Assembly: GCF_000621745.1 (NCBI RefSeq)
Contig: NZ_JHXK01000032.1
Coordinates: 1 to 64,000, forward strand
Source of the DNA: Clostridium beijerinckii HUN142
GTDB lineage: Bacteria > Bacillota > Clostridia > Clostridiales > Clostridiaceae
Direction of reading: 5' to 3'
DNA: 64,000 nucleotides
Shown: piece by piece, positions 72 through 29,165 of the stretch
Layout: every line of letters begins with the position of its first letter
Numbering within the stretch: position 1 is the stretch's first letter
Notes under the pieces: model-generated
Databases searched by the model: none
The model's input: only the letters and a program-made list of their open reading frames with translations
What the model was told of the DNA's origin: nothing
Position numbers and translations under genes: made by a program

Positions 72-171
72 TGATATTATTTATTTAATAAGACTTAGGC
101 AAAAGCAAAAAAATAATAGACCAGTATGATTATCTATTATTTCCTTTCATGTGCCTAAACTGGAGGCTTAT

Positions 172-1329
172 ATGAATTCAGATATTAGTTCAGATATTAG
201 TATAGTTGATGAAGAGAAAGCGGAAGATATTAGTGAGGTACTTTTTAAGAGTAATACGCTTATTAAAAGTAATATTAACATCACTAGCGTGGAATATAAG
301 ATTTTTAATAAGATTTTATATAAATGCCAAATTGAGAAAGAAAATGACAGCCAGTTAAGAGCTGTTTTAACAATTGATGAGCTAAGCAGCATTGTTAAGA
401 ATAAAAAAGAAAATACAGTGAAAGCACTAACTGAAAGCTTAGAAAAGTTTATAAAAATTCCTATCAGATTTGAAAAACAAAAAAGTTATGTGATTACAAC
501 ACTTATTAATAAGGTTGTAGTAGATAAAGACACTCTTAAATTCAATTGTTATTTAGATAAGGATCTTTATGAAGTTTTAATGGGATATAAAGAGCTTGGA
601 TATTCGCCTATAAATTTAAAGATGATAAGGCAGGCAAATGGATATTACACTCAAAGGTTTTATGAGTTATTTAGAGTTTGGAGCGGGCATAATAAGGAAG
701 TTACGCATACAATAGAGCAGCTTAAAGGGTGGCTTATGATTGAGGAAGGTACATCTTATGACAGGTATTTTAACTTCAAAACTAAAGTTGTAGAGCCGGC
801 ATTAAAGGAAATAAACCAAAAGTTAAATATGAAAGTATCTTATAAAGAAAATAAAGCTGGAAGATCAGTAAAAAGCTTAACTTTTATTGTTGAAGATTTA
901 GAGCCTAGAATATATGATTTTAGTAAAGACAAGGCTATAAATAAGCAAATTTCAATTGATGAGTTGGCTTTAGAATTAGATGATAGCTCTTATGAAGAAT
1001 CCTTGTTAAAAGATAAAAAGGAAACTTTAGATGCTACTGAATACTTAAAAAAATCAGGATTTACCATAGCAGACTCAACTATACATAGACTTAAGTTAAA
1101 ATATGGTGAAGTTCTGGTTTATGATGGGGTATCTATAATGTGTAATAAATCAAAACAAGGAAAGATAACAGCACCAGTTAAGTATTTGACAGGAATACTT
1201 GAAAATTTAAATAATAAATCTTTAAATGAGCAAGCAGATGACTCTAAAAAGCTACGGTTTAATAATTTTGAACCAAGGCAGTATGATTATGATGATCTGG
1301 AGAGAAAGTTGCTTGGATGGGATAAGTAA
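172..1329 (+). CDS. Replication initiator protein, Rep_3 / RepB family (replicon 1)
   Basis: A 385-residue initiator of the Rep_3 superfamily, which binds iterons with two winged-helix domains to open the plasmid origin. The family pattern is visible near the N-terminus (LIKSNINITSVEYKIFNKIL) and in the segment with YYTQRFYELFRVW around residue 165. The C-terminal motif FNNFEPRQYDYDDLERKLLGW is nearly the same as the end of the second Rep at 59853-60869, so the two are paralogues. An upstream GTG at 151 is open in frame, but GGAGG at 162-166 precedes the ATG at 172, which I take as the start. The repeats at 17-71 are its likely binding sites. Confidence 0.85.
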   Translation: MNSDISSDISIVDEEKAEDISEVLFKSNTLIKSNINITSVEYKIFNKILYKCQIEKENDSQLRAVLTIDELSSIVKNKKENTVKALTESLEKFIKIPIRFEKQKSYVITTLINKVVVDKDTLKFNCYLDKDLYEVLMGYKELGYSPINLKMIRQANGYYTQRFYELFRVWSGHNKEVTHTIEQLKGWLMIEEGTSYDRYFNFKTKVVEPALKEINQKLNMKVSYKENKAGRSVKSLTFIVEDLEPRIYDFSKDKAINKQISIDELALELDDSSYEESLLKDKKETLDATEYLKKSGFTIADSTIHRLKLKYGEVLVYDGVSIMCNKSKQGKITAPVKYLTGILENLNNKSLNEQADDSKKLRFNNFEPRQYDYDDLERKLLGWDK

Positions 1330-4675: not shown

Positions 4676-4711
4676 AAATTAAAGAAAATGATATACAGAG
4701 GAGTGACAAAA

Positions 4712-5464
4712 ATGGGCATTGTAATTAGTATTTTAAATAATAAGGGCGGAGTAGGTAAATCAACATCAACATATAATTTAGGATATGAATTAAGTAAAAT
4801 GGGTAAAAAAACATTAATAATAGATTTGGATCCACAGAGTAGTTTGAGCGTATATGTTGGACTTGATCCACTAGAACATTACGCAAGTATAGAAAATGTA
4901 TTTAGGGGAGAGATGAAATTAGAGGAGGTAATAGTGCCAACTGGAAATGAAAATTTATTTATGGTTCCTAGCTGCATAGAATTTTCTACTATAGAAATGT
5001 ACTTAATGGGAGTAATGGGAAGGGAAACAGTATTTGCTAAAGCTCTAGAAAATGCTAAGAAAAGCTTTGATTACATCCTTATAGATAATAGTCCATCACT
5101 TGGAAATACTACAATAAACTCTTTGTTTGCATCAGATTATGCAATAGCTCCAACCGATGCATCGTATCTTTCTTTTAGAGCTCTTGGAATATTAAATGAA
5201 ACTGTTAAACAGGTTCAAGAATTTAATAAGAAATTAAAAGACGTAAAAGTACTTATAACCATGTATGACGGCAGAGCTAATCACAGCAGAGAAGTTGCTG
5301 TGATGCTAAAAGAAAAATATTATGTTTTCAAAGATTACATTAAAACCAGCACTAAATTTAAAGATGCAGTAATGAGGTTTGAAAGTATAACTCAATATGC
5401 TGGTGAAAAGTTTGATGGTTCTATAGCTTATAACAACGTAGCAAAGGAGATAATATCATGGTAA
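4712..5464 (+). CDS. parA: ParA-family partition ATPase
   Basis: A 250-residue deviant-Walker ATPase that moves plasmids over the nucleoid. The Walker A motif KGGVGKST is at about residues 11-18, the Walker A' region LIIDLDPQSSLS at about 38-49 and Walker B-like YILIDNSPS near 122. There is no long N-terminal HTH extension, as in type Ib ParA proteins that use small ribbon-helix-helix partners. Start: AGAGGAGTGACAAAAATG puts the ATG at 4712; an earlier in-frame ATG at 4688 has no ribosome binding site. Its stop overlaps the next gene start (ATGGTAA), so the two are translationally coupled. Confidence 0.9.
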   Translation: MGIVISILNNKGGVGKSTSTYNLGYELSKMGKKTLIIDLDPQSSLSVYVGLDPLEHYASIENVFRGEMKLEEVIVPTGNENLFMVPSCIEFSTIEMYLMGVMGRETVFAKALENAKKSFDYILIDNSPSLGNTTINSLFASDYAIAPTDASYLSFRALGILNETVKQVQEFNKKLKDVKVLITMYDGRANHSREVAVMLKEKYYVFKDYIKTSTKFKDAVMRFESITQYAGEKFDGSIAYNNVAKEIISW

Positions 5465-13026: not shown

Positions 13027-14475
13027 ATGAAAAAAAGAAGAACTTTAAAAAAAATATATTCGTTACTAATTATATTTTTTATGATTGAGATTATGTTTAC
13101 TGGAAATAGTGTACAAGCTATTGAGAAAAAGTCAGAAAATCAAATTAATTTAATTGTATTATTTAATGACAATAATATTGATACTGATGTTGAAAATTTT
13201 GTAAGTGAAAGTGGTGGTAAAGTAGTTAATAAACTTGCTGATATCGGGGGAATGGAAATTTATTGTGATGTTGAATTAATACCTAAAATTCAAGATTATG
13301 CTACTGTAAAATCAATAGCACCAAATCATAAAATTAATATTAAAAAAGGAAAAGCAATAGATTTTAAACAGCTTAAATCGAACAAAATGAGTTTAAATAA
13401 AGTTGATGATACTAGCAATGATGGGGATTTATATAATTTGTATCAATGGGATATTAAAAGAGTAACGAGCAACGGAAAAAGTTTTGATTTATGTAGTGGA
13501 AATCATGATGTGGTAATTGGTATTGTAGATTCTGGAATAAAAAAAAATCATCCTGATTTAGAGAAAAATTTTATGGGTGGAGAAAATTTTGTATCTAAGA
13601 ATTTTGATGATGATGAAACAGAAACAGGAGATCCAAAGGATATAGAAGATAGATTTGATCATGGTACATATGTAGCTGGGGATATTGCTGCTAATGGAAG
13701 AGTTAAGGGGGTCGCACCTAATATCGGATTTAAGAGTTACCGTGTTTTTGATTCACAAGGAAATACAAATGCATCTATAGTATCGCAAGCAATAATAAAG
13801 GCAACTAATGATGGAGTTAATGTTATTAATTTAAGTATGACAGGTTATGATTTGAAAGGAAAATGTTATTGGACTGACCCTAAGACTGGAGTTAAACATA
13901 ATGTAGGAGATGATATGGCAGAATACGAGTTATATAAACGTGCAATTAAATATGCAATAAAACATAATGTTACTGTAGTTACGGCAGCAGGAAATGATGG
14001 GATTAATTGTTCAAATACGAAAAAATTAACAGAATTTCTTAATAAGCAGAATGGAAAAGATGGATTTACGTATAGTGGATTGACTTATGTAGTTCCAGCA
14101 GATATTAAAGGTGTTATAAATGTTTCTGCTACCGGAGCAGGTGATAAAATTGCATCATATTCAAATTATGGGAATAAGTTTATTGATGTAGCGGCACCTG
14201 GAGGTGATTCAGCTGTAGGACAAACTGTAAATGATTTGTGTTTGAGTACAGCAGCTAATGATACTGGTTATATGTTTCAAGAAGGAACATCAATTGCAGC
14301 ACCAAAAGTTTCAGCAATAGCAGGACTTATTTTATGTAAAGAGCCTAGTCTTACACCAAAAGAAGTCGCAAAAAGAATTTATAAAACATCTGATAAGTTA
14401 TCTGGTAATAAATCAAGTGAATATTATGGAGCGGGACTAGCTAATGCATATAAGGCATTAAATAGTAAAAAATAA
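13027..14475 (+). CDS. lanP: LanP-type subtilisin-like leader peptidase
   Basis: 482 residues with an N-terminal signal or anchor (LLIIFFMIEIMFTGNSVQA) and a propeptide (I9-like, about 35-130). The S8 catalytic residues are visible: Asp in IGIVDSGI (about 167), His in DHGTYVAG (about 212) and Ser in EGTSIAAP (about 421), with the oxyanion Asn in TAAGNDG. NisP and EpiP, which remove lanthipeptide leaders outside the cell, are of this type. No LPxTG anchor is present, so it is probably secreted or held by its N-terminus. It stands 0.8 kb before the first precursor and is the only such protease in the locus, so it probably serves all five precursors. Confidence 0.8.
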   Translation: MKKRRTLKKIYSLLIIFFMIEIMFTGNSVQAIEKKSENQINLIVLFNDNNIDTDVENFVSESGGKVVNKLADIGGMEIYCDVELIPKIQDYATVKSIAPNHKINIKKGKAIDFKQLKSNKMSLNKVDDTSNDGDLYNLYQWDIKRVTSNGKSFDLCSGNHDVVIGIVDSGIKKNHPDLEKNFMGGENFVSKNFDDDETETGDPKDIEDRFDHGTYVAGDIAANGRVKGVAPNIGFKSYRVFDSQGNTNASIVSQAIIKATNDGVNVINLSMTGYDLKGKCYWTDPKTGVKHNVGDDMAEYELYKRAIKYAIKHNVTVVTAAGNDGINCSNTKKLTEFLNKQNGKDGFTYSGLTYVVPADIKGVINVSATGAGDKIASYSNYGNKFIDVAAPGGDSAVGQTVNDLCLSTAANDTGYMFQEGTSIAAPKVSAIAGLILCKEPSLTPKEVAKRIYKTSDKLSGNKSSEYYGAGLANAYKALNSKK

Positions 14476-15267: not shown

Positions 15268-15417
15268 GTGGGAAAATTAGATGATTTTGATTTGGATGTA
15301 AAAGTAAAAATAAATTCTAAAAAAGGTATAAAACCATCATATCTAAGCCTTACACCAAAGTGTACATCACTGTGCCCTACTAACGTGTTTGTTTGTATTA
15401 GCAAAAGATGTAAGTAA
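15268..15417 (+). CDS. Class I lanthipeptide precursor LanA1
   Basis: 49 residues, GTG start after AAGGGGGAG. The leader MGKLDDFDLDVKVKI carries the FDLD box recognised by LanB/LanC enzymes (FNLD in nisin). The core after about KGIKP is SYLSLTPKCTSLCPTNVF followed by VCISKRCK, with four Cys and several Ser/Thr, enough for up to four (methyl)lanthionine rings. Unlike the other four cores it lacks the S-x3-C, T-P-G-C start typical of nisin-like peptides (it has TPKC instead). Probably matured by the nearby LanB, LanC and LanP. Confidence 0.85.
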   Translation: MGKLDDFDLDVKVKINSKKGIKPSYLSLTPKCTSLCPTNVFVCISKRCK

Positions 15418-15472: not shown

Positions 15473-15604
15473 ATGGCAAAATTAGGTGATTTTGATTTAG
15501 ATTTAAAGGTGAAAATAAAGCCTAAAGGCGGCGTAACACCAGCAACAGTTTCTCGATTTAATTGTACATTGTTTGGTTGTATTAAAGTGAAGGACAATAT
15601 ATAA
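15473..15604 (+). CDS. Class I lanthipeptide precursor LanA2
   Basis: 43 residues after AAAGGAGGATTTTAAT. Leader MAKLGDFDLDLKVKI with FDLD; the core after about GGVTP is ATVSRFNCTLFGC plus IKVKDNI. S-R-F-N-C and T-L-F-G-C could form the nisin-like A and B rings; only two Cys, so it is the smallest peptide of the set. It is co-transcribed with lanA1 and ends at a terminator, with no further gene in the unit. Confidence 0.8.
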   Translation: MAKLGDFDLDLKVKIKPKGGVTPATVSRFNCTLFGCIKVKDNI

Positions 15605-15625
15605 ACGGATTTAAAATTAAAATAT

Positions 15626-15668
15626 AAAAAGAGTTTGAACTTAAATTCAAACTCTTTTTATATTTTAA
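15626..15668. terminator. Bidirectional terminator between lanA2 and the tRNA
   Basis: AAAAAGAGTTTGAA pairs with TTCAAACTCTTTTT across a short loop; runs of A and T on both sides serve lanA1-A2 on the plus strand and the tRNA on the minus strand. Confidence 0.85.
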
Positions 15669-15677: not shown

Positions 15678-15752
15678 TGGTGACCCGTAAGAGACTCGAA
15701 CTCCTGATTCTACCATGAGAAGGTAGTGTCTTAACCGCTTGACCAACGAGCC
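15678..15752 (-). tRNA. tRNA-Glu (anticodon CUC), CCA encoded
   Basis: 75 nt on the minus strand. Acceptor GGCTCGT pairs with ACGGGTC, followed by A73 and CCA. D arm GTC-AAGCGGTTAA-GAC; anticodon arm CTACC-TTCTCAT-GGTAG gives anticodon CUC (codon GAG); T arm AGGAG-TTCGAGT-CTCTT. All stems are paired (with a few G-U), so it should be functional. It lies between lanA2 and lanA3, facing them. It has its own consensus promoter and terminator. LanB dehydratases of this cluster type need glutamyl-tRNA(Glu), which makes its position meaningful. Confidence 0.93.
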
Positions 15753-15765
15753 TTGCTATATTTTT

Positions 15766-15794
15766 ATAATACACATGTACCTATTATTTGTCAA
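15766..15794 (-). promoter_or_regulatory. Consensus sigma-A promoter of the tRNA-Glu
   Basis: On the minus strand TTGACA, 17 bp, TATTAT, then 13 nt to the first tRNA base. One of the best housekeeping promoters in the window. Confidence 0.8.
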
Positions 15795-16104: not shown

Positions 16105-16245
16105 ATGGGAAAATTGGATGATTTTGATTTAGATGTAAAGGTAAAGGCAACTCCAAAAGGAGGAGTAAAACCATCAATTACAAGTAGAATTTTATGTACA
16201 TCAAGCTGTTATACTCAATTTATACAATGTCATGACAGAGTTTAA
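16105..16245 (+). CDS. Class I lanthipeptide precursor LanA3
   Basis: 46 residues after AAAGGGGGACTTAAAA. Leader MGKLDDFDLDVKVKA; the core after about GGVKP is SITSRILCTSSC followed by YTQFIQCHDRV. ITSxxLCTxxC is the start of nisin, with SRILC and TSSC as rings A and B and T-Q-F-I-Q-C as a probable ring C. It is a single-gene unit ending at the terminator at 16360. Confidence 0.88.
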   Translation: MGKLDDFDLDVKVKATPKGGVKPSITSRILCTSSCYTQFIQCHDRV

Positions 16246-17328: not shown

Positions 17329-17472
17329 ATGATAAAATTAGATGATTTCGATTTAAAGATTAAAAAGGACGACAATAAAACTGGAAAGGTTACACCACAA
17401 GTAAATAGCCGTTATGCATGTACACCAGGTTCATGTTGGAAATGGGTTTGCTTTACAACAACTGCTAAATAA
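17329..17472 (+). CDS. Streptin-like class I lanthipeptide precursor LanA4
   Basis: 47 residues after AAGGGGGATTCAAA. Leader MIKLDDFDLKIKKDDNK with the FDLK box; the core after about KVTP is QVN followed by SRYACTPGSCWKWVCFTTT and AK. Streptin of Streptococcus pyogenes is VGSRYLCTPGSCWKLVCF followed by TTTVK, so only a few residues differ (YL to YA, KL to KW, TV to TA). Rings expected: S-R-Y-A-C, T-P-G-S-C and one to the third Cys. An attenuator-like hairpin separates it from lanB1, which it probably shares a transcript with. Confidence 0.92.
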   Translation: MIKLDDFDLKIKKDDNKTGKVTPQVNSRYACTPGSCWKWVCFTTTAK

Positions 17473-17592: not shown

Positions 17593-20500
17593 ATGAAAGA
17601 TAAATATATTAACACTAATTATTATATGGTTCGTTCACCACTTCATCCAATAAGTTTTTCTGAAAGATATAGCAATATTGAGGAATCATTTGAGGAAATT
17701 AAAGAAGATAATATATTTAATGAACAATTATTAATTGCAAGTCCAAGTTTGTATAAAATGATACATGAAAATAAGTTGGATGAATTATCACCAAAAAAGA
17801 AAAAACAATTAATTTCTTCAATTTTAAGTTATCAAAATAGAGCTGCATATAGAACAACACCTTTTGGGCTTTTTTCAGGTGTTGAGTTAAAAGAAATTAA
17901 TGAAACATATCACCAAGGTAACATAGATATTAAAAAGAACTGTAGAGTTGATATTGAATGGTTGTTATTATTTGTTAAAAAATTGGAAAATGAAAATTAT
18001 AAAACACTTAATTATAAATTGAACAGTGGCTATTATCAATTTGGAGATAGGGTGTATTTACCTTATAATACAGAGTCAGATTGTGGAAGAATAAGTATAA
18101 TGTATAGTAAACCATTTCGAATAATTAAAGAAATGTGTACAGATAAATCAACAAGCTATTTAAGTATTATTAATAACCTAAAAAAAGAATATCCTGATAG
18201 AAACATAGAAGTATTTAATAATTATTTGAATAGTTTAATAAAAAAAGAATTTTTAATTTCAGAATTAAGAGCTCCTTTATGTAATACAAATGAGCTGGAA
18301 TATTTAATTAATGTAATAAAGAAGAATACAACATTATCTGTTAATTATGCAGATGATTTAGAAGTTATAAATAACCTTATTATGGAATATAAAAATACAA
18401 GATTAGGTGAGGGAATTAATAAATACAAGGCTATTTGCGAAAAAATGAAAAGCTTATTTGATCATAATAAAAATAGTTTTTTGCAAGTAGATTGTGAAGT
18501 TATGAATTTAAAAACAAATATTGAAAATAAAGATCTTAAAACAATGAGTGAATTTATTAACTACTTATTTTCAGTTATTTCTATGGAAAATTCCACTAGT
18601 ATATTAGAAGAATATGAATTAAAATTTATAGAAAAATACGGAGAGTATATAGAAGTTCCCATATATGAGCTACTTGATGAATCAATAGGCATAGGTGCAC
18701 CAAGTAGTTATAGTAATCCTAAAAACAAGTTTATTAATTCAGAAAAATTAAATGAGTCTAATCTAAAGCTTAAGGAGTATTTTTTAGAAAAATATTCAGA
18801 AGCAATAAAAAGCAACAGTTATATACAATTAGATGATAATGAAATCACTTTTTTAGAAAGCAAGATAGAAAGCTGTAATTTACCAGAATCACTTGAATTA
18901 AACTTTATAGTTAAAATGCTTGATAATGAAAAAATATTTTATCTAGGACCAAACATTGGATCTGCTATGGCGGGAAAAACATTTGGAAGATTTGGTTATA
19001 TGTCATCTAAATATTCAAATGTTTTAGATGACATATCTAGTTTATTATCAAGAGAAAATGAATGCAGGTGTGAATTAAGCTTTATTCCTTCTACTGTAAG
19101 AGCGGGAAATGTTATCCGAAACATAACGAATTATAATAAGAATATTTCGTGCTATACAAACTCATATGATGAAGATAATGAAATTAGAATAAATGATATT
19201 TTAGTTGGATATGATAATGAAAAGTTTTATCTTCGGGACTCAATTAGTGGTAAAAAAATTAAAGTTTTTATGACAAATATGCTTAATATAAGTACCTTGC
19301 CAAATATATTCAGATTGTTAATTGATATTTCATATGATTCAAAATTTATATTAAGTACATTCCCATGGGAAAAATACTATGAAAATTTTACTTATATACC
19401 TGAAATAAAATATAAAAATATTGTTGTGTCCAGCGAAAAATGGAAGATTTCAAATTATAGTTTAAACTTAAAAAATAAGAATAGTTATGATGAATTCGTA
19501 ACGGTATTTATGGATTTAAGAGAAAAATTATCGATTCCAGATAAAATATATTACACTATTGCTGATAATAGGTTATTGCTAGATTTAAGGGAAGAAAAAT
19601 ATTTAAAACTTCTTTTTGATTATTATAAAAAAGGTCTTTTTTTAGAATTAGAAAAAGCTGATGAAGCTGAATATATAACTTACAATGACAATAATAAGCA
19701 TAATACTGAAGTAGTGATACCATTTATAAAAAGTAAAGGTAAAGAATATGAGGAATTAAGTTTTAAAGAAATAAACAAACATAGTACAAAAGATCAAATG
19801 ACATTTTTACCATTTGATACTTGGTTATATTTTAAACTATATGGTCCTTTAGATAGGCAGAATGAATTAATTGAATATTTGAATTATTTTATAAAATCTT
19901 CAGCAAATATAGAAGAATTTTATTTTATGCGATATGTAGACCCAAAACCACATATTAGAATTCGTTTTAAAGGTAATGAAGATAAACTGTATAAAATTTT
20001 AAATGAAATGAACTTATTTGGACAAGACTTAAAAAAGCGAAGAATTATCTCTAATCTTGTTATTGATACATATATTCCAGAAGTAGAGAGATATGGCGGA
20101 GAAAGTCTTATAAGTTATGCAGAAAAAATATTTTTTGAAGATAGTAAAGTAGTTATGGAAGCAATTTCTAATTTAGATATAGAAAAAGAAAAAGAAAAAT
20201 ATGGAGTAATAAGTGTTTTGCATTATTTAAAATCATTTAATTTAAGTTTTGAAGAGCAATTTGATTTTTTAAACAATTCTTTTGTATCTAGTGAATATTT
20301 AGAAGAATTTAAAAAAGTAAAGAATGAATATATAAATGATTGTGATTCATATAACAGATGGAATAACCTTGTAAAAAATGATAGTTATGGAGAATTCTTG
20401 AGATTATTAAAACAAAGAGAAAAGTCAGTATCAGATTATTGTATGAAGTTATCAAATTCTTCAGAACGCACAAATGAATATAGTGATATATTAGGAAGTA

Positions 20501-20637
20501 TTGTCCATTTACATTGTAATAGATTATTTGGAATAGATAGAGAAATTGAAAAAAAAGTACTAAATTACGCTTGTCGTGTTTTACATGGTCAAAAATATCT
20601 TAGGAAGCAGATGATTGACAATGTTCAATATTATTAA
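17593..20637 (+). CDS. lanB: Lanthipeptide dehydratase LanB1
   Basis: 1014 residues, the usual length of a full LanB. The glutamylation domain fills residues 1 to about 730 (N-terminal pattern YMVRSPLHPISF; RAAYRTTPFGLFSGVEL around residue 88). The elimination domain (SpaB_C type) begins near residue 735 with FLPFDTWLYFKLYGP and contains FMRYVDPKPHIRIRF and the C-terminal SIVHLHCNRLFGID. Such enzymes dehydrate Ser/Thr of the precursor using glutamyl-tRNA(Glu), then eliminate glutamate to leave Dha/Dhb. A tRNA-Glu gene lies 1.8 kb upstream. Overlaps lanT1 by 23 nt. Confidence 0.95.
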   Translation: MKDKYINTNYYMVRSPLHPISFSERYSNIEESFEEIKEDNIFNEQLLIASPSLYKMIHENKLDELSPKKKKQLISSILSYQNRAAYRTTPFGLFSGVELKEINETYHQGNIDIKKNCRVDIEWLLLFVKKLENENYKTLNYKLNSGYYQFGDRVYLPYNTESDCGRISIMYSKPFRIIKEMCTDKSTSYLSIINNLKKEYPDRNIEVFNNYLNSLIKKEFLISELRAPLCNTNELEYLINVIKKNTTLSVNYADDLEVINNLIMEYKNTRLGEGINKYKAICEKMKSLFDHNKNSFLQVDCEVMNLKTNIENKDLKTMSEFINYLFSVISMENSTSILEEYELKFIEKYGEYIEVPIYELLDESIGIGAPSSYSNPKNKFINSEKLNESNLKLKEYFLEKYSEAIKSNSYIQLDDNEITFLESKIESCNLPESLELNFIVKMLDNEKIFYLGPNIGSAMAGKTFGRFGYMSSKYSNVLDDISSLLSRENECRCELSFIPSTVRAGNVIRNITNYNKNISCYTNSYDEDNEIRINDILVGYDNEKFYLRDSISGKKIKVFMTNMLNISTLPNIFRLLIDISYDSKFILSTFPWEKYYENFTYIPEIKYKNIVVSSEKWKISNYSLNLKNKNSYDEFVTVFMDLREKLSIPDKIYYTIADNRLLLDLREEKYLKLLFDYYKKGLFLELEKADEAEYITYNDNNKHNTEVVIPFIKSKGKEYEELSFKEINKHSTKDQMTFLPFDTWLYFKLYGPLDRQNELIEYLNYFIKSSANIEEFYFMRYVDPKPHIRIRFKGNEDKLYKILNEMNLFGQDLKKRRIISNLVIDTYIPEVERYGGESLISYAEKIFFEDSKVVMEAISNLDIEKEKEKYGVISVLHYLKSFNLSFEEQFDFLNNSFVSSEYLEEFKKVKNEYINDCDSYNRWNNLVKNDSYGEFLRLLKQREKSVSDYCMKLSNSSERTNEYSDILGSIVHLHCNRLFGIDREIEKKVLNYACRVLHGQKYLRKQMIDNVQYY

Positions 20638-22387
20638 ATTGAATATACAGTGTGTTTATAAGACTATAAAATTAATACTAGAAATTAGCAAAGGATTATT
20701 AATAGTATCAATTTTACTTTCTGTTTTCCTTGGCTTTTCTCCAATTATATCTATGATTCTATCACAGGAATTACTAAATGCATTACAACTCAAAAAAGAA
20801 ATCTATGGATTAATGTTATTATTTGTATCATATATAACATTTTCGATTTTCTCTTCAATAATTACAAATATATCAAATTATGTTGATGAAAAATTACAAA
20901 TAAAATTAGGTTATAGACTTAATTATATTATAATGGAGAAATGTGGAAAACTTTCTCTTGAACATTTTGAAGAGTCTGAAATATATAATCAAATAACTAG
21001 GCTGGAGAATGATGTTACTTATAAACCATATCAATCACTACAAGCTGTTATGACTTTAATATCATCCATTATTTCCTTTGGATCGTCAATAGTAATTTTG
21101 TTTACATGGAAACCACTGATTATTATTGTTATTATGTTACTTTCCTGTGCAGGACTTTTTTATTATTTGAAAATTGGAAAAGAAGAATTTAATATTCACT
21201 ATGAACTAAGTGGAAAAGAAAGGGAGGCGTGGTATTTAAGCTATCTTTTGACACATGATTTGGCTTTCAAGGAAATTAACCTTCTTAATATAAAAGAATA
21301 TTTTTTAAACAAGTATTGGGATATTAAGGAGAATATTTTTCAAAAACAAAATGGTATTAATAAGAAAAAGACTACATTTAGTTGTATATTTGAGATTTTA
21401 CAAGAACTTTTAATTTCAATTGTAGTTTTGATGGCACTTATATCAGCTTATTATGGAAGTATTTTAATTGGTAATGTTGCAACTTATATTAAAACAATAA
21501 GCTTAATTCAATCTAATACTAATACTATCATAAGCTCGCTATATTCTATATATAATAATAATCTATATATGAAGTTATTTGATGATTTTATGAATATTGA
21601 AGTAGTTAATGAAAATGTAGGAAAAGAAATAGATACAGTTGAATCTATAGAATTAAAAAATATTTCATTTGATTATAGTAATGATAAAAAAGCTTTAGAT
21701 AATGTAAATTTGAAAATAAATAAAGGCGAGACAGTTGCTGTCATTGGAAAAAATGGATCAGGTAAAAGTACTTTATTAAAATTAATCTGTGGATTATATA
21801 CAATTAATCAAGGAGAAATTTTAATTAATGGAATTAATCTTAAAGAAATAAATAAGACAACATATAAAAACAGACTATCAGTTTTGTTTCAAGATTACGT
21901 AAAATACGAAATGACACTGAAGGAAAATATTATTTTAGGGGATATTTCAAAGGATGAGAAAAATGGAGACATTTTAAATGCACTAAAATTAGCAGGTGGA
22001 GATTTTTTTGATACATCATCTAATAACGATATTTTAAATATTCAACTTGGAAATTGGTTTGATGAAGGAGTACAACTTTCAGGAGGCCAGTGGCAAAAAA
22101 TTGCTCTATCTAGAACATATTATAGAGATAGAGATGTTTATTTATTAGACGAGCCTAGTGCTGCACTTGATCCTGATGCAGAAATTAATGTATTTAGTAC
22201 GTTTTATAAATTATCAAGAAATTCAATAGGATTATTCATTACTCATAAAGTTGCAGCGGCTAGAAAGGCATCAAAGATAATAGTTTTAGATAATGGTAAG
22301 GTTGTAGGATGTGGAACAGATGAGTATTTATCTAAAAATTGTCCAGCGTATATTGAGTTGAAAGAAAAAGGAGAATATGAATATTAA
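20615..22387 (+). CDS. lanT: Lanthipeptide exporter LanT1 (ABC transporter)
   Basis: 590 residues: membrane domain with several spans (about 20-320), then an ATPase domain with Walker A GKNGSGKST (about 378), signature LSGGQWQK (about 487) and Walker B VYLLDEPSAALD (about 508). There is no N-terminal C39 peptidase domain, as in NisT, so the leader is removed later by LanP. A TTG at 20615 has a better spacing (7 nt) from AGGAAG than the ATG at 20621. Overlap with lanB1 implies coupling. Confidence 0.92.
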   Translation: MTMFNIIKLNIQCVYKTIKLILEISKGLLIVSILLSVFLGFSPIISMILSQELLNALQLKKEIYGLMLLFVSYITFSIFSSIITNISNYVDEKLQIKLGYRLNYIIMEKCGKLSLEHFEESEIYNQITRLENDVTYKPYQSLQAVMTLISSIISFGSSIVILFTWKPLIIIVIMLLSCAGLFYYLKIGKEEFNIHYELSGKEREAWYLSYLLTHDLAFKEINLLNIKEYFLNKYWDIKENIFQKQNGINKKKTTFSCIFEILQELLISIVVLMALISAYYGSILIGNVATYIKTISLIQSNTNTIISSLYSIYNNNLYMKLFDDFMNIEVVNENVGKEIDTVESIELKNISFDYSNDKKALDNVNLKINKGETVAVIGKNGSGKSTLLKLICGLYTINQGEILINGINLKEINKTTYKNRLSVLFQDYVKYEMTLKENIILGDISKDEKNGDILNALKLAGGDFFDTSSNNDILNIQLGNWFDEGVQLSGGQWQKIALSRTYYRDRDVYLLDEPSAALDPDAEINVFSTFYKLSRNSIGLFITHKVAAARKASKIIVLDNGKVVGCGTDEYLSKNCPAYIELKEKGEYEY

Positions 22388-22407: not shown

Positions 22408-23697
22408 ATGGATGGAATAAAAATTGTTAAAAATATTGCACAAAAATTAGGAGATATTAAATTTGTAAATAAAGTTTTGCTTGAAGAGGATAATTATTTA
22501 AATTTAGGAGACATAAAGTTTTATCCTAATATTCCTTTAGCGCTAAGCCATGGGCTTCCTGGATTATGTTTATTATACAATGAATTGCATAAATTATACC
22601 CTAATGAAGGATGGAATGAGTTGTGTAATAATTATATCAAAACAATCGTGGATTATATACAAGAAGAAGGACTGCAGTCAAGCTCTTTATTTTCAGGAAC
22701 ATCAGGAATAGCATTGGCGGTAAAAGCCTGTTCCAATAATGGAGCATACTACAAATCACTGTTGCAGACTCTTGATAATCATTTGTATAGTCAATTGGAT
22801 GTAAATTTAAATTATATTATAAATAAGAAAGACACAGAAATGTTTGATTATGACGTAATTGAAGGAATGTCTGGAATAGGAAATTATTTATTATTAAATA
22901 ATAAAGAAAAACATTTAGAAAAAATATTGAATTATTTTGTAGATTTGTCAAAGCCGGTTTCGTATTTAAATTTTGAAGTTCCAAGATGGTTTATAAAAAA
23001 AGAACACTTATTTAATGACGATGAAAAGAAGTACTATAATCAAGGTATTTTAAATTTAGGACTTTCACATGGAATTCCAGGTCCTTTGATAATACTATGT
23101 AAATCATATAGTAAAAACATAATAGTTGATGGACAAAAGGAAGCAATAGAAAAAATTGTTGGAGATATTATTAAGTGTAAAATAAAAGGCACTAATCAAT
23201 GGAATGGCATGATAGGATTAGAGGAATACATTAATGGTGCAAAGAATTCAGATGCTGTTAGAGATGCATGGTGTTATGGAACTCCAGGAATTGCCTATTC
23301 ACTTTTAGGATCTTCATACACCTTGAAAAATAATAGCTTATATGAAATGTCTTGTGAGGCAATGAAAGAATCTGTGAAGAAGGAAAACGGATTATTTTCA
23401 CCATCGTTTTGTCATGGATATTCTGGATTAGCATATATCTCATATAAATTTTATTGTAAAACAAAAGATAAATTATTTTTAAATGAAAGTGACAGACTTT
23501 TGGAAAAGATATTAAGTTATTATACTGATGATGCTCCTTTTGGATTTTATAATATTGAGAATAGTAGTTCGAATATAAAAAATTTAAATTCAATAGCATT
23601 ATTAGATGGAGCATCAGGAACCTTATTAACACTATTAGAGTTAATTTCAAAAACTAATAGTGTAGATTGGGATTCAGCTTTCTTATTAGATAATTAA
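22408..23697 (+). CDS. lanC: Lanthipeptide cyclase LanC1
   Basis: 429 residues. Zinc ligands of the LanC family are visible: Cys in DAWCYGTPG (about 287) and Cys-His in SPSFCHGYSG (about 333-334). Repeated GxxG helix motifs (LSHGLPGLCLLY, SLFSGTSGIALAV, GLSHGIPGPLI) form the alpha-barrel. It adds Cys thiols to dehydrated residues to close the rings. Last gene of lanB1-T1-C1 and followed by a terminator. Confidence 0.93.
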   Translation: MDGIKIVKNIAQKLGDIKFVNKVLLEEDNYLNLGDIKFYPNIPLALSHGLPGLCLLYNELHKLYPNEGWNELCNNYIKTIVDYIQEEGLQSSSLFSGTSGIALAVKACSNNGAYYKSLLQTLDNHLYSQLDVNLNYIINKKDTEMFDYDVIEGMSGIGNYLLLNNKEKHLEKILNYFVDLSKPVSYLNFEVPRWFIKKEHLFNDDEKKYYNQGILNLGLSHGIPGPLIILCKSYSKNIIVDGQKEAIEKIVGDIIKCKIKGTNQWNGMIGLEEYINGAKNSDAVRDAWCYGTPGIAYSLLGSSYTLKNNSLYEMSCEAMKESVKKENGLFSPSFCHGYSGLAYISYKFYCKTKDKLFLNESDRLLEKILSYYTDDAPFGFYNIENSSSNIKNLNSIALLDGASGTLLTLLELISKTNSVDWDSAFLLDN

Positions 23698-23740: not shown

Positions 23741-23880
23741 TATATAAATTTATTGAAGTACTATCTTAGTTGTTAGAAATCAAATAAATTAATTTGAAAA
23801 TATTTGTTATATCCTTATAAAATCCTTAAAATTATCATTTAAAATTAACTTATATAGTGAAAGAAAGAGGGAAAAACAAT

Positions 23881-24582
23881 ATGAATTATATTTTAGAAAC
23901 TAAAAATCTTAGTAAAAAGTTTAAAAATCAAAAAGCTGTTAATGAAATTAGTCTTTCTATTCCTGAAAATTGTGTTTATGGATTATTGGGTCCTAATGGA
24001 GCAGGAAAATCAACCACATTAAAAATGATAGCGGGTATTTTTAGACCAACTTCTGGGGAGATTTACTTTTGTGGAAGTAAATGGAGGAGAGAAAACCTCA
24101 GCGATATCGGCGCATTAATTGAAAATCCTCCATTATATGAAAATTTAACAGCAAGAGAAAATCTTAAGGTAAGAACTACAGTTTTAGGGCTTCCAGACTC
24201 TAGAATTCAGGAAGTGCTAGAGAGTGTTGATTTAACCAAGACAGATAATAAACTTGCAGGGCAATTTTCTCTAGGTATGAAGCAGAGATTAGGCATTGCA
24301 ATTGCCTTACTAAATAAACCTAAACTCCTTATATTAGATGAACCAACAAATGGCTTAGATCCAATAGGAATTGAGGAGCTTAGAAATTTAATTCGTTCAT
24401 TTCCAAAGCAAGGAATAACGGTAATCCTTTCTAGTCATATTTTAGCTGAAGTTCAGCAAGTAGTGGATGAAGTAGGAATAATATCTGGTGGAGTGTTGGG
24501 ATATGAAGGAAAAGTTACTGAAAATGATAATTTAGAAGAGTTATTTATGAATGTTGTTTTAAATAATAGAAAGGAGGCATAA
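23881..24582 (+). CDS. lanF: Lantibiotic immunity ABC transporter ATPase, LanF type
   Basis: 233 residues: Walker A GPNGAGKST (about 38-46), signature SLGMKQRLGIA, Walker B LLILDEPTNGLD. The Q-loop carries Glu (GALIENPPLYENL), the E-loop typical of LanF/BcrA-type immunity ATPases. ATG at 23881 follows AAGAGGG; the in-frame GTG at 23857 is less likely. First gene of a tight lanF-E-G operon that expels lantibiotic from the membrane. A duplicated set for cluster 2 is absent. Confidence 0.88.
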   Translation: MNYILETKNLSKKFKNQKAVNEISLSIPENCVYGLLGPNGAGKSTTLKMIAGIFRPTSGEIYFCGSKWRRENLSDIGALIENPPLYENLTARENLKVRTTVLGLPDSRIQEVLESVDLTKTDNKLAGQFSLGMKQRLGIAIALLNKPKLLILDEPTNGLDPIGIEELRNLIRSFPKQGITVILSSHILAEVQQVVDEVGIISGGVLGYEGKVTENDNLEELFMNVVLNNRKEA

Positions 24583-24587
24583 ACAGT

Positions 24588-25316
24588 ATGATTAAATGTA
24601 TTATATCTGAAATGCAAAAACTTAAAAGAACATTTAGTAAAAAACTAATTTTTATTGCACCACTAGCCACTTTATTTATTTGTGGGATTTTAGGAGCAGG
24701 AGAAACTTTTCAAAATGGTGCTTATAATTGGTGGTATACAATGTTTTTACCCGGTGCTTTAAGTATTATTTGTGGAACAATGGTAGATAAAGATAAAAAG
24801 TTAAAGTACAATGAACTTTTTACATTGCCTTTCAGTAAAAATACAGTATGGATTGGTAAAATAATAGCATGTAGCTTTATGTATTTAATTTCTTCTATTG
24901 TTTTTGTTATTGGTATAATCTTAGGGGGATTTATATTTGGAGAAATAATGTCTTTTTCTCAGATTATAGAGGGTATGATAGTATTGTTTATAACATTTTT
25001 GTGGCAAATTCCATTGTGTATGATTTTATGTGGAAAGTTTGGAATGATTGCAACAGTTTTAATAAACATGATAGCAAATGTAATAGGCGTTGCGGGTTTT
25101 TCGGATGGTGCAAATTGGTACTTATATCCTTTTTCTATTCCTTCTAGATTAATGTGTGCTATTTTGAATATACTGCCAAATGGATTTCCTGTAGAAAAAG
25201 GAAGTTTTCTTTTAAACACTAATGTAATTATTCCTGGAATAATTATATCTTTAGTTTGTTTCATTGGAATTACAGCATTAACCGGTATGTGGTTTAATAC
25301 TCAGGAGGGAATATAA
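24588..25316 (+). CDS. lanE: Lantibiotic immunity ABC permease, LanE type
   Basis: 242 residues, about six membrane spans, opening MIKCIISEMQKLKRTFSKKLIF as in LanE/MutE permeases (short basic N-terminus with conserved E-x-x-K-x-K-R). Starts 6 nt after lanF and overlaps lanG by one base (TAATG). Forms a heterodimeric membrane part with lanG. Confidence 0.82.
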   Translation: MIKCIISEMQKLKRTFSKKLIFIAPLATLFICGILGAGETFQNGAYNWWYTMFLPGALSIICGTMVDKDKKLKYNELFTLPFSKNTVWIGKIIACSFMYLISSIVFVIGIILGGFIFGEIMSFSQIIEGMIVLFITFLWQIPLCMILCGKFGMIATVLINMIANVIGVAGFSDGANWYLYPFSIPSRLMCAILNILPNGFPVEKGSFLLNTNVIIPGIIISLVCFIGITALTGMWFNTQEGI

Positions 25317-26077
25317 TGACATATTTTTTTAGAGTCCTCCATTCAGATATGTTAAAAATGAAGAAATCCATGCTAAAAAGAATTCATTTTATGATACCTT
25401 TATTTGGAATCGTTACGTTTTTAAGCTATTACTCATTTTCACCACATAGTCATATTGGGGAAATAACAGGATATTTACAAGTTATTGGAGTTTCTTTCCC
25501 ATTACTTATTAGTATTGTTACTTCCATATGCATAGATCAGGAATCTGCAGCAGGAAATTTTATAGAGATGCTAATAGGTTCAAAAATCAAGAATATGACC
25601 TTTTTAAGCAAGATGATGCTACTTATAATCATGGGATTTTTAGCAATTATGGCAGCATGTGTTGGTTTTTATTTTGGTTTTTCGTATCTACTTCATAGAA
25701 ATAATTTTGATATTGGTTTTTATATTATGGCAGCATTAATTCTTATATTAAGTAATATCTTTGAATATATTTTTCATTTATTTTTATCTATGAGATATGG
25801 AAAAAGTGTATCCATGGGAGTTGGAATTACAGAAACTATGCTAAGTGCAATATTAATAACTGATTTAGGATATAAAATCTGGCCTTATATTCCATGTGCC
25901 TGGGGAACCAGATTTGTGAATTACTGGATTATATCAAATTCAAGCTCATTTTTTATAAATACTGATTCTAAAGAAATTTACTATGCTATATACTCATGTA
26001 CAATATTAACAATTCTAGCATTTATAATTTCATGTGTGTGGTTTTATCATTGGGAAGGAATAAGAACGGAAAGTTAA
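25316..26077 (+). CDS. lanG: Lantibiotic immunity ABC permease, LanG type
   Basis: 253 residues with about six spans. The N-terminus (FRVLHSDMLKMKKSMLKRIHFMIPLFG) and the middle segment DQESAAGNFIEML follow the MutG/LanG pattern. Partner of LanE and LanF. No LanI lipoprotein gene is seen next to it. Confidence 0.82.
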   Translation: MTYFFRVLHSDMLKMKKSMLKRIHFMIPLFGIVTFLSYYSFSPHSHIGEITGYLQVIGVSFPLLISIVTSICIDQESAAGNFIEMLIGSKIKNMTFLSKMMLLIIMGFLAIMAACVGFYFGFSYLLHRNNFDIGFYIMAALILILSNIFEYIFHLFLSMRYGKSVSMGVGITETMLSAILITDLGYKIWPYIPCAWGTRFVNYWIISNSSSFFINTDSKEIYYAIYSCTILTILAFIISCVWFYHWEGIRTES

Positions 26078-26219
26078 TGGTTATTAATTTATTCTCCATT
26101 AAAAGTGAAATATACTTTAGTTAAATATTTTTATACGAATAGATGATTAATTACCTAATTAATTTTAATTTGTTATTTTGTTTCATGTGCGTAATGTAAA
26201 TAATAGAGGGGGCAAAAAT

Positions 26220-26879
26220 ATGGCAAGAATATTAACTGTTGATGATGATACAAATATATTAGCTCTAATAAAAAAAGCATTAGAAAAGGATAACCATATA
26301 GTTAGTACTTTATCTGAACCAAGTCAAATTTTTGATTTGCAGCTTGGGATGTATGATCTTATTTTGCTTGATGTAATGATGCCTAATATAGATGGATTTA
26401 CATTATGTAATAAAATACGCTGTAAAACAGATTGTCCTATATTATTTCTTAGTGCAAAGACGATGGAAAATGATATTATGCAAGGTTTAGATGTTGGTGG
26501 CGATGATTATATTTTAAAGCCATTTGGAATAGGTGAATTACGTGCACGTGTAAATGCTCATTTAAGAAGAGAAGGAAGAGAGCGACGTAATATATTTAAC
26601 ATTGGAGATGTGTGCATTGATATTTCAGGTAAAAAGTTAGCTGTTCATAATGAAGAGCTAACTTTAACAAAAAGTGAATATGAAATATGTGAATTTCTTG
26701 CATGTAATCATGGGCAAGTATTTTCTAAAGAAAAAATATATGAAGAGGTTTTTGGCACTTATGGTGAAGGTGAGAGTTCAGCTATAGCTGAACATATTAA
26801 AAATATACGTGGAAAATTTATGAAATTTAATATATCTCCAATAGAAACTATATGGGGGCTAGGATATAAATGGAAATGA
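26220..26879 (+). CDS. lanR: OmpR-type response regulator LanR1
   Basis: 219 residues. Receiver domain with acidic pair VDDD (about 6-9), phosphoacceptor Asp in LILLDVMMPN (about 50) and Lys in YILKPF (about 101); C-terminal winged helix ending SPIETIWGLGYKWK. AGAGGGGGC precedes the ATG at 26220; the longer frame from 26178 lacks a site. Its stop overlaps lanK1. It probably controls the precursor promoters and the lanFEG operon; the first residues (MARILTVDDDTNIL) are like those of MutR/NisR-type regulators. Confidence 0.88.
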   Translation: MARILTVDDDTNILALIKKALEKDNHIVSTLSEPSQIFDLQLGMYDLILLDVMMPNIDGFTLCNKIRCKTDCPILFLSAKTMENDIMQGLDVGGDDYILKPFGIGELRARVNAHLRREGRERRNIFNIGDVCIDISGKKLAVHNEELTLTKSEYEICEFLACNHGQVFSKEKIYEEVFGTYGEGESSAIAEHIKNIRGKFMKFNISPIETIWGLGYKWK

Positions 26880-28237
26880 ATAAAAAATCAAAACATCTAA
26901 GAGGAATTTTTGTTAAATATTTATCTATATTTTGTATAGGTACTTTATTATTACTGTTAATTCTTGGAGTCTCATATGGAATGCTCCTATCTAATGGTGA
27001 AATTCTTTCCTCAAATTATAATGAAAAGAGGATTCAAGAAATACAGGATACTATGATTGAGCAAAAAAAAATAACACCAGATTTAATTAATGGAGAATAC
27101 AGCTATGCTTTATTTACAACTAATGGAGAAATTATTTCAGGAAACTTAAAAGAATCAACTGCTAAAAAGGCTTATAAACTTTTAGAAGAAAATGAAGTTG
27201 TAGAAGATTTTTTTTATTACTATGTTAAAGTTTCTATAGAAGATAAGGTCTGTATTTTTAGATACTCTATCTCTTCAGAATTTAAATCTCCTTTATTAAG
27301 GAAGTTTTTACCTACGCCTGGTATTTTAACTGTTATTTTATTTGTTGTATTTTTTATTTTAGAAGTAATAATTTTAGCATTATTGTTTTCAAAACAAATT
27401 GTACACAAAATGAGATGTTTACATGAGGTAACAGAAAAAATAAAAAATCAGGATTTAGATTTTGTTGTTGATGAGAGTGGTATTTATGAAATAGACAATG
27501 TTTTACAATCAATGATAAAAATGAGGAATGCATTAAAAAAATCTTTAGAAGAGCAGTGGCAGTTAGAAGAAATGCGTAATGAACAAATGTCTTCATTAGC
27601 ACATGATATTAAATCTCCAGTTACGGTTATTCGTGGTAATACAGAATTGTTATTTGAAACAGAACTAACTAATGAACAAAAAGAATATTTAAACTTTATA
27701 ATCCAAAGCTCATCACAGATACAAGAATATATTAAAACATTAATTGAAATATCAAGAGATGAAATGAAATCAAATCTTAAAACAGAAAAAATTAATGCTG
27801 AAGAGTTTATTGAGGAGATTCATGATTCTATTAGTGCGTTAACTGGAATAAAAAAATTACAATTAGAATTCAATAAAGGAAAACTCCCGAAGGATTTTTA
27901 TGGAAACTCATCTTTATTAAAACGAGCTATTATAAATGTAGTTTCCAATGCAGTAGAACATTCGAAAGAAAATGAAAAAGTGATTTTTAATTGTAATAGC
28001 GATCAGAAAAATATTATAATTACAATTATTGATTATGGAATAGGATTTTCAGAAGAAGATTTGGCTAAAGGAATGCAAAAATTTTATATGGGGGACAGTA
28101 GTAGAAGTAATAAATCTCATTATGGAATGGGACTATATATAGCTCATACTATAGCTATAAAACATAATGGAAATTTAATATTACGTAATTCAAAAATTAC
28201 TAATGGCGCAGAAGTAGAAATCCAGATTCCACTGTAG
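26870..28237 (+). CDS. lanK: Sensor histidine kinase LanK1
   Basis: 455 residues: two membrane spans (about 20-42 and 150-175) around a short extracellular loop, then HAMP-like linker, H-box SSLAHDIKSPVTVIRGN (about 243-259), N-box NVVSNAVEHS, G-boxes DYGIGFSEED and GMGLYIA. This is the NisK/SpaK layout, where the loop senses the mature lantibiotic. Overlaps lanR1 by 10 nt and ends before a strong terminator. Confidence 0.88.
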   Translation: MEMNKKSKHLRGIFVKYLSIFCIGTLLLLLILGVSYGMLLSNGEILSSNYNEKRIQEIQDTMIEQKKITPDLINGEYSYALFTTNGEIISGNLKESTAKKAYKLLEENEVVEDFFYYYVKVSIEDKVCIFRYSISSEFKSPLLRKFLPTPGILTVILFVVFFILEVIILALLFSKQIVHKMRCLHEVTEKIKNQDLDFVVDESGIYEIDNVLQSMIKMRNALKKSLEEQWQLEEMRNEQMSSLAHDIKSPVTVIRGNTELLFETELTNEQKEYLNFIIQSSSQIQEYIKTLIEISRDEMKSNLKTEKINAEEFIEEIHDSISALTGIKKLQLEFNKGKLPKDFYGNSSLLKRAIINVVSNAVEHSKENEKVIFNCNSDQKNIIITIIDYGIGFSEEDLAKGMQKFYMGDSSRSNKSHYGMGLYIAHTIAIKHNGNLILRNSKITNGAEVEIQIPL

Positions 28238-28728: not shown

Positions 28729-28884
28729 ATGGGAAAATTAGATAATTTTGATTTGGATGTAAAGATAAAAAAGGATGAGAAGAGAGGAGTAAAGCCATCA
28801 GTTACAAGTTATAGTGCATGCACTCCGGGATGTGCTACAAGCCTATTTAGGACTTGCTTGACTAGATCTTGTAAAGGATGCTAA
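28729..28884 (+). CDS. Nisin-like class I lanthipeptide precursor LanA5
   Basis: 51 residues after AAAGGAGG. Leader MGKLDNFDLDVKIKK; the core after about GVKP is SVTSYSACTPGCATSLF followed by RTCLTRSCKGC, with five Cys. VTSYSACTPGC lines up with nisin ITSISLCTPGC: rings A (S-Y-S-A-C) and B (T-P-G-C), then a probable ring C and C-terminal rings. It stands alone before the second lanB-T-C set, which it presumably feeds. Confidence 0.92.
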   Translation: MGKLDNFDLDVKIKKDEKRGVKPSVTSYSACTPGCATSLFRTCLTRSCKGC

Positions 28885-28962: not shown

Positions 28963-29165
28963 GTGTGCTAGTATGAAAAAAAATTAGTAACTTTAGTTAT
29001 CATATTTATTAAATAATCATGATTTTTCATGATTCAAATCTAAAATAATCAACTACAATATATAGTATTTTATAACCAGATACATATAACTCATATTGAG
29101 ATGATTTTGTAAATAACTTAATTATGAAATTTCCTCAAATATATAATAAAAGGAGACTATGTAGT
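28963..29165. other. Leader before lanB2
   Basis: Non-coding; no second clear promoter seen, so lanB2 probably relies on readthrough from lanA5. Confidence 0.3.

What the first reader, a model, noticed from the sequence alone, without database searches (positions are those of the whole stretch)
15678..15794. A dedicated tRNA-Glu(CUC) gene embedded in a double LanB lanthipeptide cluster
Seen: a fully paired tRNA-Glu with encoded CCA, a TTGACA-17-TATTAT promoter and a terminator, placed between lanthipeptide precursor genes lanA2 and lanA3. Known: full-length LanB dehydratases (NisB, MibB) activate Ser/Thr by transferring glutamate from glutamyl-tRNA(Glu), and some LanBs discriminate between tRNA-Glu sequences. 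Inference: the plasmid brings its own tRNA-Glu so that two LanBs acting on five precursors have a supply that neither drains translation nor depends on the host tRNA; the CUC anticodon would keep most of it away from the GAA-rich decoding of this AT-rich genome. No other tRNA is seen in the window, which argues against a general translation-support island.
Basis: partly seen in the sequence, partly recalled or inferred. Interest (0 to 1): 0.93.

Follow-up and report, generated by a model that had tools for sequence, protein, structure and literature searches.

The report
tRNA-Glu gene inside a lantibiotic cluster
A bacterial plasmid that carries genes for lanthipeptide antibiotics also carries, between the peptide genes, its own unusual but intact copy of the transfer RNA that the antibiotic-making enzymes are expected to use up; whether it really feeds them is unproven and no second example turned up in the sample examined.

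Summary
In detail: one tRNA in the window, tRNA-Glu(CUC) at 15678-15752 (-), with encoded CCA, 20 of 20 stem pairs, its own promoter-like site and terminator, between lanA2 and lanA3 on a Rep3/ParA replicon with two LanB/T/C sets. It is no mere copy of host genes: 11 of 75 bases differ from the host's other tRNA-Glu(CUC), 14 from tRNA-Glu(UUC), yet no pair is lost, so it is probably functional. By a pattern search the host alone of 68 genus genomes has two CUC genes; the U32/U38 loop occurs in 1 of 206 family genomes. LanB1, beside the tRNA, groups with two Bacilli plasmid LanBs, LanB2 with LanBs of the host's family. Against the LanB reading: 0 of 32 other LanB-homolog loci have a tRNA-Glu nearby; the host has both isoacceptors; a published LanB uses CUC and UUC alike; the promoter lacks the element shared by three lanA upstream regions; a phage tRNA has the same loop. 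Dedicated supply to LanB is my leading reading (0.42), an ordinary plasmid tRNA close behind. It is a singleton.

The parts
15678..15752 (-). tRNA-Glu(CUC) gene with encoded CCA, anticodon loop UUCUCAU (U32/U38)
   Evidence: ARAGORN; Rfam; 20/20 pairs
15766..15794 (-). promoter-like site of the tRNA: TTGACA, 17 nt, TATTAT; the 180 bp upstream lack the GACGTCAAA element shared by the lanA1/A3/A4 upstream regions
15619..15666 (-). terminator hairpin of the tRNA; by its symmetry probably also ends lanA2 on the + strand (my reading; the scan lists the - strand only)
15268..15417 (+). lanA1 precursor (FDLD family)
15473..15604 (+). lanA2 precursor (FDLD family)
16105..16245 (+). lanA3 precursor (FDLD and gallidermin/nisin family)
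17329..17472 (+). lanA4 precursor (gallidermin/nisin family)
17593..20637 (+). LanB1 full-length dehydratase, groups with two Bacilli plasmid LanBs
   Evidence: Pfam; NisB alignment; tree
20615..22387 (+). LanT1 ABC transporter
   Evidence: Pfam
22408..23697 (+). LanC1 cyclase
   Evidence: Pfam
23857..26077 (+). lanFEG immunity transporter (F 23857-24582, E 24588-25316, G 25316-26077)
   Evidence: F: ABC_tran, Pfam; G: MutG, NCBIfam; E by position only, not scanned
26178..28237 (+). LanR1/LanK1 two-component system
   Evidence: Pfam
28729..28884 (+). lanA5 precursor of the second set
   Evidence: sequence only; not scanned against a family library
29124..32294 (+). LanB2 full-length dehydratase, groups with LanBs of the host's family
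   Evidence: Pfam; PDB 9g04 match; tree
32322..34130 (+). LanT2 ABC transporter
   Evidence: Pfam
34141..35475 (+). LanC2 cyclase
   Evidence: Pfam
35481..37647 (+). LanR2/LanK2 two-component system
   Evidence: Pfam
13027..14475 (+). S8 subtilase, candidate leader peptidase (LanP-like); role inferred
   Evidence: Pfam
151..1329 (+). Rep3 replication initiator (a second at 59853-60869)
   Evidence: Pfam
4688..5464 (+). ParA-type partition ATPase
   Evidence: Pfam

Best explanation
Shown: gene, promoter-like site, terminator, position, intact fold despite 11 substitutions, two intact LanBs. Inferred: host GluRS charges it (D-stem, top of the acceptor stem, base 73 and the missing base 47 are as in the host's other tRNA-Glu genes), and it adds to the Glu-tRNA pool that LanB1 and LanB2 spend, one Glu-tRNA per dehydrated Ser/Thr, on precursors with 4-10 candidate Ser/Thr each. 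The most specific form is that it serves LanB1, whose closest relatives found sit on Bacilli plasmids and which may not be matched to the host's own tRNA-Glu. It is probably made constitutively, since it lacks the element shared by three lanA upstream regions.
For: tRNA intact with its own promoter-like site and terminator inside the lanA array. 11 substitutions against the host's other CUC gene, 7 in stems, all 20 pairs kept; random 11-base change of that gene reaches 20 pairs in 70 of 200,000 draws (uniform) or 3,083 of 200,000 (10/11 transitions). Only G000 of 68 genus genomes has two matches to the CUC pattern; 48 have one, 19 none. Both LanBs keep the motifs around the NisB residues R87, T89, D121, D299, R464 (numbers from PMC7296275, passages) and the elimination-domain R/H motifs (recalled). 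LanBs use Glu-tRNA-Glu and their main recognition elements are in the acceptor stem (PMC10877564, PMC9993889, passages). LanB1 groups with a Priestia and a Streptococcus plasmid LanB (99/98), LanB2 with three LanBs of the host's family (100/100). Acceptor stem plus base 73 differs at 3 of 15 positions from each of the host's other tRNA-Glu genes but at 1 of 15 from a Priestia and a Niallia gene.
Against: 0 of 32 other LanB-homolog loci have a tRNA-Glu nearby, so LanBs do not generally need one. The host has one more CUC and two UUC genes. BpcB works with either isoacceptor; NisB is promiscuous. The acceptor-stem likeness is not specific to Bacilli: a C. difficile UUC gene and Lachnospiraceae CUC genes also differ at only 1 of 15, and a Planococcus gene at 3. 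Pairs 1-3 and base 73 are the same in the window and host genes, so nothing shows that LanB1 could tell them apart. The LanB tree does not split cleanly by taxon: other Bacilli LanBs fall on LanB2's side, and the Streptococcus row has a long branch. No shared element with lanA1/A3/A4. No GluRS among the 40 window ORFs scanned with Pfam (85 ORFs of 60 aa or more are listed). A tRNA-Glu(CUC) on a viral contig, next to two tRNA-Leu, has the same U32/U38 loop, so the loop does not argue against decoding.
Confidence: 0.42

Rival explanations
1. An ordinary accessory tRNA of a plasmid that supports translation (GAG decoding) or makes the plasmid useful to its host; its place in the lan array is chance.
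For: The fold is constrained as in a working tRNA. Plasmids and viruses do carry tRNAs. The viral-contig tRNA with the same loop presumably serves translation. No shared element with lanA1/A3/A4. Other LanB loci lack it.
Against: The five other tRNA-bearing plasmid stretches that I opened (106 plasmid records match the tRNA) hold 7-29 tRNAs each, not a lone one. Window GAG share (20.9%) is no higher than in five other stretches of the genome (22.8%). The host already has a CUC gene. A tRNA-Glu in the 22.4 kb lan region has P about 0.011 at the genome's own density (post hoc).
Confidence: 0.35
2. A passenger: a tRNA-Glu captured from a chromosome or phage by recombination, kept without a role.
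For: The host's other tRNA-Glu(CUC) lies next to an integrase-like gene (by its C-terminal motif, recalled; not scanned), and two 33-35 bp pieces like its 3' end lie on contig C20, so this kind of gene is handled by mobile elements. The window has an integrase-family gene at 47511-48428. Upstream regions in the lanA array are duplicated (repeats D1).
Against: A copy free of selection would be expected to lose pairs (on average 14.8-16.7 of 20 left after 11 changes; observed 20). Promoter-like site and terminator are present. No second piece of the tRNA in the window.
Confidence: 0.16
3. A spare tRNA-Glu with an altered anticodon loop that replaces host tRNA-Glu cut by an anticodon nuclease (counter-defence or self-protection).
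For: Five of the 11 changes lie in the anticodon arm, with U32/U38 in place of C32/C38 (1 of 74 distinct tRNA-Glu sequences); a viral contig has the same loop.
Against: No tRNA nuclease was recognised in the 10 window ORFs scanned with PADLOC; the AbiLi-like ATPase and the type I methylase among them are not known to me as such. The tRNA lies in the lan array, not beside a defence gene.
Confidence: 0.05

Closest known systems
Nisin-type class I lanthipeptide clusters (LanB glutamyl-tRNA-dependent dehydratase), e.g. maddinglicin/MadB of Clostridium
   Same: FDLD/gallidermin-type precursors, full-length LanB with N and C domains, LanT, LanC, LanFEG, LanRK; LanB2 matches PDB 9g04 over its length, which I take to be MadB (inference from PMC12241602, passages)
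   Different: two sets on one replicon and a tRNA-Glu gene inside the lanA array; 0 of 32 other LanB-homolog loci examined have one nearby
pEVOL-type engineering, where producer tRNA-Glu and GluRS are supplied with LanB in E. coli (PMC9993889, PMC10877564, passages)
   Same: a tRNA-Glu supplied on a plasmid alongside LanB genes
   Different: that is man-made and includes GluRS; here it is natural, tRNA only as far as scanned, and benefit is untested
Accessory tRNAs of plasmids and viruses (Priestia, Niallia, Planococcus, C. difficile records; viral contig L266)
   Same: extra-chromosomal tRNA-Glu genes; L266 shares the U32/U38 loop
   Different: those opened lie in arrays or beside other tRNAs; this one is alone and inside a biosynthetic cluster
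S. aureus genomic island vSa-beta (PMC6805111, passages)
   Same: a lantibiotic cluster (bsa) on an element with a tRNA-Glu in the same island
   Different: there tRNA-Glu is one of 8 tRNAs in a cluster at the island's end, discussed by its authors in connection with integration

Membership tests
tRNA-Glu(CUC) | cloverleaf with CUC anticodon and CCA end | tested here: met
tRNA-Glu(CUC) | GluRS identity features (U11-A24, no base 47, top of acceptor stem; recalled from E. coli work) | tested here: met
   D-stem, variable loop and top of the acceptor stem as in the host's other CUC gene; charging itself untested
tRNA-Glu(CUC) | C32/C38 loop usual in the genus | tested here: not met
   U32/U38 here; the 49 other genus matches have C/C, but that pattern admits only C or T there; 1 of 206 family genomes has T/T
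class I lanthipeptide cluster | LanA with FDLD/gallidermin leader, full-length LanB, LanC | tested here: met
dedicated LanB co-substrate gene | recurs with LanB clusters | tested here: not met
   0 of 32 other LanB-homolog loci
dedicated LanB co-substrate gene | LanB1/LanB2 use or prefer this tRNA | not testable with these tools
   needs an enzyme assay
dedicated LanB co-substrate gene | co-regulated with lanA | tested here: inconclusive
   the element shared by the lanA1/A3/A4 upstream regions is absent before the tRNA, but it is absent before lanA5 too; its role is not known
general plasmid tRNA array | several tRNAs on the replicon | tested here: not met
   one tRNA in 64 of 65 kb

The most novel reading that the evidence does not exclude
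A natural biosynthetic plasmid has turned a tRNA into a pathway gene: a tRNA-Glu freed from most decoding, kept chargeable, and tuned to a horizontally acquired LanB1 of Bacilli type so that the cluster works in a Clostridium-like host whose own tRNA-Glu fits LanB1 poorly.
Probability: 0.15. Interest if true: 0.85.

Novelty: new variant of a known kind. Interest (0 to 1): 0.5.

Why it matters
LanB enzymes differ in which tRNA-Glu they accept, and which part of the enzyme decides this is open (stated in PMC12241602, passages). A cluster that carries its own diverged tRNA-Glu next to two LanBs of different ancestry would be a natural experiment on that question and on how such clusters cross between distant hosts. 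It would also be a rare case of a tRNA gene belonging to a biosynthetic pathway. If it is only a stray plasmid tRNA, the interest falls to a curiosity.

Tried and rejected
Folding energy as proof of the tRNA: uninformative (z -0.43). None of the loci fetched from that set, of at most 8 kb, gives a LanB match. Phage or plasmid source: no close match (phages 14 records, plasmids 106 records, best 80.6% in both). GAG demand: no enrichment. The search for related loci with LanB1 in genome contigs (108 pattern stretches, none confirmed) and with LanB2 in viral contigs (none) gave nothing. Bacilli-like acceptor stem as proof of LanB1 matching: rejected as weak, since Clostridia genes share it and Planococcus does not.

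Failed steps: my pattern had one N too few and missed the window's own tRNA, so those nulls are void; repeated correctly (viral contigs; 206 family genomes; the class was not repeated). The pair indexing was off by one and is replaced. In one search one Priestia row (L047) is shifted by one base by ARAGORN, so its figure of 11 is an artefact.

Coverage of the LanB survey: the 32 loci are L043; G038, G030, G048, G023; 14 loci; 8 plasmids; 5 loci. Flanks: about 17-20 kb each side for G038, G030 and G048; about 11-20 kb for L043; about 12 kb for seven plasmids, less where the record ends (L260 is a whole 19 kb plasmid); about 8-9 kb for most others; less at contig ends (G023 and G722 on one side, G815), and only 4.6 kb in all for L119. 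G487, G541, G722, G861 and G815 are partial or weak LanB hits; L118 (G541, a LanB fragment) has two tRNA-Trp. Two sub-cut-off hits (G795, G634) were not fetched. Of 104 plasmid records with a LanB1 match I opened 9. The tree has the two window LanBs and 26 others; G527, G487, G541, G722, G861 and G815 were left out, and G346 is a short frame (748 aa). GAG counts are for stop-to-stop frames of 200 aa or more, and that the five comparison stretches are chromosomal is presumed.

Full report
What is there. ARAGORN finds one tRNA in the 64 kb window, tRNA-Glu(CUC) at 15678-15752 on the minus strand, and Rfam agrees at 56.4 bits. The gene encodes CCA. All 20 stem pairs are standard, counting G-U. 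A TTGACA-17-TATTAT promoter-like site ends 13 nt before it; sites of this quality are not rare in the stretch (32 found, 19.2 expected), so the position counts for more than the match. A 20-pair hairpin lies beyond its 3' end. The scan lists it as a terminator on the tRNA's strand only; from its symmetry I read it as also ending lanA2. The tRNA runs against the lan genes, in the 0.5 kb between lanA2 and lanA3.

Surroundings. The window is 64,000 of the 64,987 bases of contig C25 in a 6.1 Mb genome. It has two Rep3 initiators and ParA, so it is probably a plasmid, though the contig ends do not overlap. It holds two lanthipeptide sets. The first has lanA1-A4, LanB1, LanT, LanC, LanFEG and LanRK; the second has lanA5, LanB2, LanT, LanC and LanRK. 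LanE was assigned by position and lanA5 by sequence only. Both LanBs have the full N and C domains and keep the motifs around the known NisB residues. LanB2 matches PDB 9g04 at 1,220 bits; that this is the Clostridium dehydratase MadB is my inference from PMC12241602 (passages).

The host's tRNA-Glu genes. Similarity searches find, besides the window copy, one tRNA-Glu(CUC) on contig C19 and two identical tRNA-Glu(UUC) on C15 and C29; that these contigs are chromosomal is presumed. The window gene differs from the other CUC gene at 11 of 75 positions and from UUC at 14. Its nearest relatives in the set compared are five CUC genes of the genus, each 64 of 75 identical. Among the 12 distinct CUC genes it is the outlier: its nearest neighbour is 11 changes away, against 1-6 for the others. 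A pattern search found two CUC matches in G000, one in each of 48 other genus genomes and none in 19 (68 searched); genes that depart from the pattern would be missed.

Is it kept by selection? Seven of the 11 differences fall in stems, yet no pair is broken. Random placement of 11 changes on the other CUC gene reaches 20 pairs in 70 of 200,000 draws with uniform changes and in 3,083 of 200,000 if 10 of 11 are transitions, as observed. This supports a working tRNA. It does not say what for.

Odd loop. The anticodon loop reads UUCUCAU. Among 74 distinct tRNA-Glu sequences in the loci then held, 60 have CUCUCAC, 7 CUUUCAC, 6 CUCUCAA and only this one UUCUCAU. In 206 family genomes the pattern with U32/U38 is found only here. 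One viral contig of 224 kb has it too, in a tRNA-Glu(CUC) next to two tRNA-Leu. So the loop is rare but also compatible with a virus's translation tRNA. My first attempts at this search used a faulty pattern and count for nothing; the class-wide one was not repeated.

Does it go with LanB elsewhere? I searched PF04738 in 68 genus genomes (5 with a match), 206 family genomes (17), 391 of the class (5) and 398 of the phylum (7, 5 of them over the cut-off); these sets overlap and each includes the host. I then looked for tRNAs around 32 other LanB-homolog loci, 9 of them on named plasmids. None has a tRNA-Glu; one, beside a LanB fragment, has two tRNA-Trp. The LanB2 relatives in G416 (64.9%), G030 and G048 (54%) and the nearest LanB1 relative (Priestia plasmid, 41.6%) are among the 32. 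The association is a singleton in this sample.

Two LanBs of different ancestry. In a maximum-likelihood tree of 28 LanBs, LanB1 groups with plasmid LanBs of Priestia and Streptococcus (99/98), LanB2 with three LanBs of the host's family (100/100). The tree does not split cleanly by taxon: other Bacilli LanBs, a second Priestia one among them, lie on LanB2's side, and several rows, the Streptococcus one included, have long branches. The LanB1 side was found in the plasmid collection, which leans to Bacilli in what I opened. With those cautions LanB1, whose cluster holds the tRNA, looks foreign to the host. The acceptor stem plus base 73 differs at 3 of 15 positions from both host isoacceptors and at 1 of 15 from a Priestia and a Niallia gene; LanB recognition elements are reported in the acceptor stem (PMC10877564, PMC9993889, passages). 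This fits a tRNA matched to LanB1, but a C. difficile and Lachnospiraceae genes are equally close, a Planococcus gene is not, and pairs 1-3 and base 73 do not differ from the host's. I treat it as a lead.

How it most likely works. LanB activates Ser/Thr with glutamate from Glu-tRNA-Glu (passages), so each dehydration should spend one charged tRNA. The five precursors have 4-10 Ser/Thr after residue 18. A constitutive extra tRNA-Glu would raise the pool, and a CUC anticodon would leave GAA codons, about 79% of Glu codons in the window's longer ORFs, to the UUC tRNAs. I put this at 0.42. The main rival is an ordinary accessory tRNA whose place is chance (0.35): no shared promoter element, no recurrence, and LanBs that do well with various tRNA-Glu, such as NisB, and BpcB with either isoacceptor. 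A passenger (0.16) is disfavoured by the intact pairing, and nuclease escape (0.05) rests on the loop alone.

In print. Searches for a tRNA gene inside a lanthipeptide cluster showed no such case in the rows listed; some matched hundreds of papers of which only the top rows were seen. The library lacks most subscription papers, including the MibB tRNA-specificity paper. The nearest case seen is the S. aureus island vSa-beta, where a lantibiotic cluster and a cluster of eight tRNAs including tRNA-Glu share an island (PMC6805111, passages).

Verdict. The dedicated-supply reading is plausible and testable but rests on position and anatomy in one replicon.

Noticed in passing
G000:C19 (L037 5749-7153) and G000:C20 9744-9778, 41041-41073: The host's other tRNA-Glu(CUC) has an integrase-like gene (by its C-terminal motif, recalled; not scanned) beside its 3' end, and two 33-35 bp pieces like that 3' end lie on C20 with similar flanking sequence: it looks like an integration hot-spot.
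   Followed up: partly
window 17593-20637 and 29124-32294: The two LanBs on one replicon fall in different clades, one with two Bacilli plasmid LanBs and one with LanBs of the host's family.
   Followed up: yes
L266 6938-7012: A 224 kb viral contig carries a tRNA-Glu(CUC) with the same rare U32/U38 loop, next to two tRNA-Leu genes.
   Followed up: partly
window 61233-62504: ATPase whose best PADLOC match is AbiLi (E 3.1e-97).
   Followed up: no
window 54059-55987: A protein with an N6 DNA methylase domain and matches to type I specificity subunits in its C-terminal part, possibly a fused M-S protein.
   Followed up: no
window 15096-15294, 15933-16131, 17157-17355: About 200 bp upstream regions of lanA1, lanA3 and lanA4 are repeats of one another (61% and 80% identical to the lanA3 copy) with a shared GACGTCAAA element, suggesting duplication of whole promoter-precursor units.
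   Followed up: partly
window 56555-57568: MqsA-like antitoxin with a Panacea (SocA-like) domain, with an unassigned 112 aa neighbour at 56040-56378.
   Followed up: no
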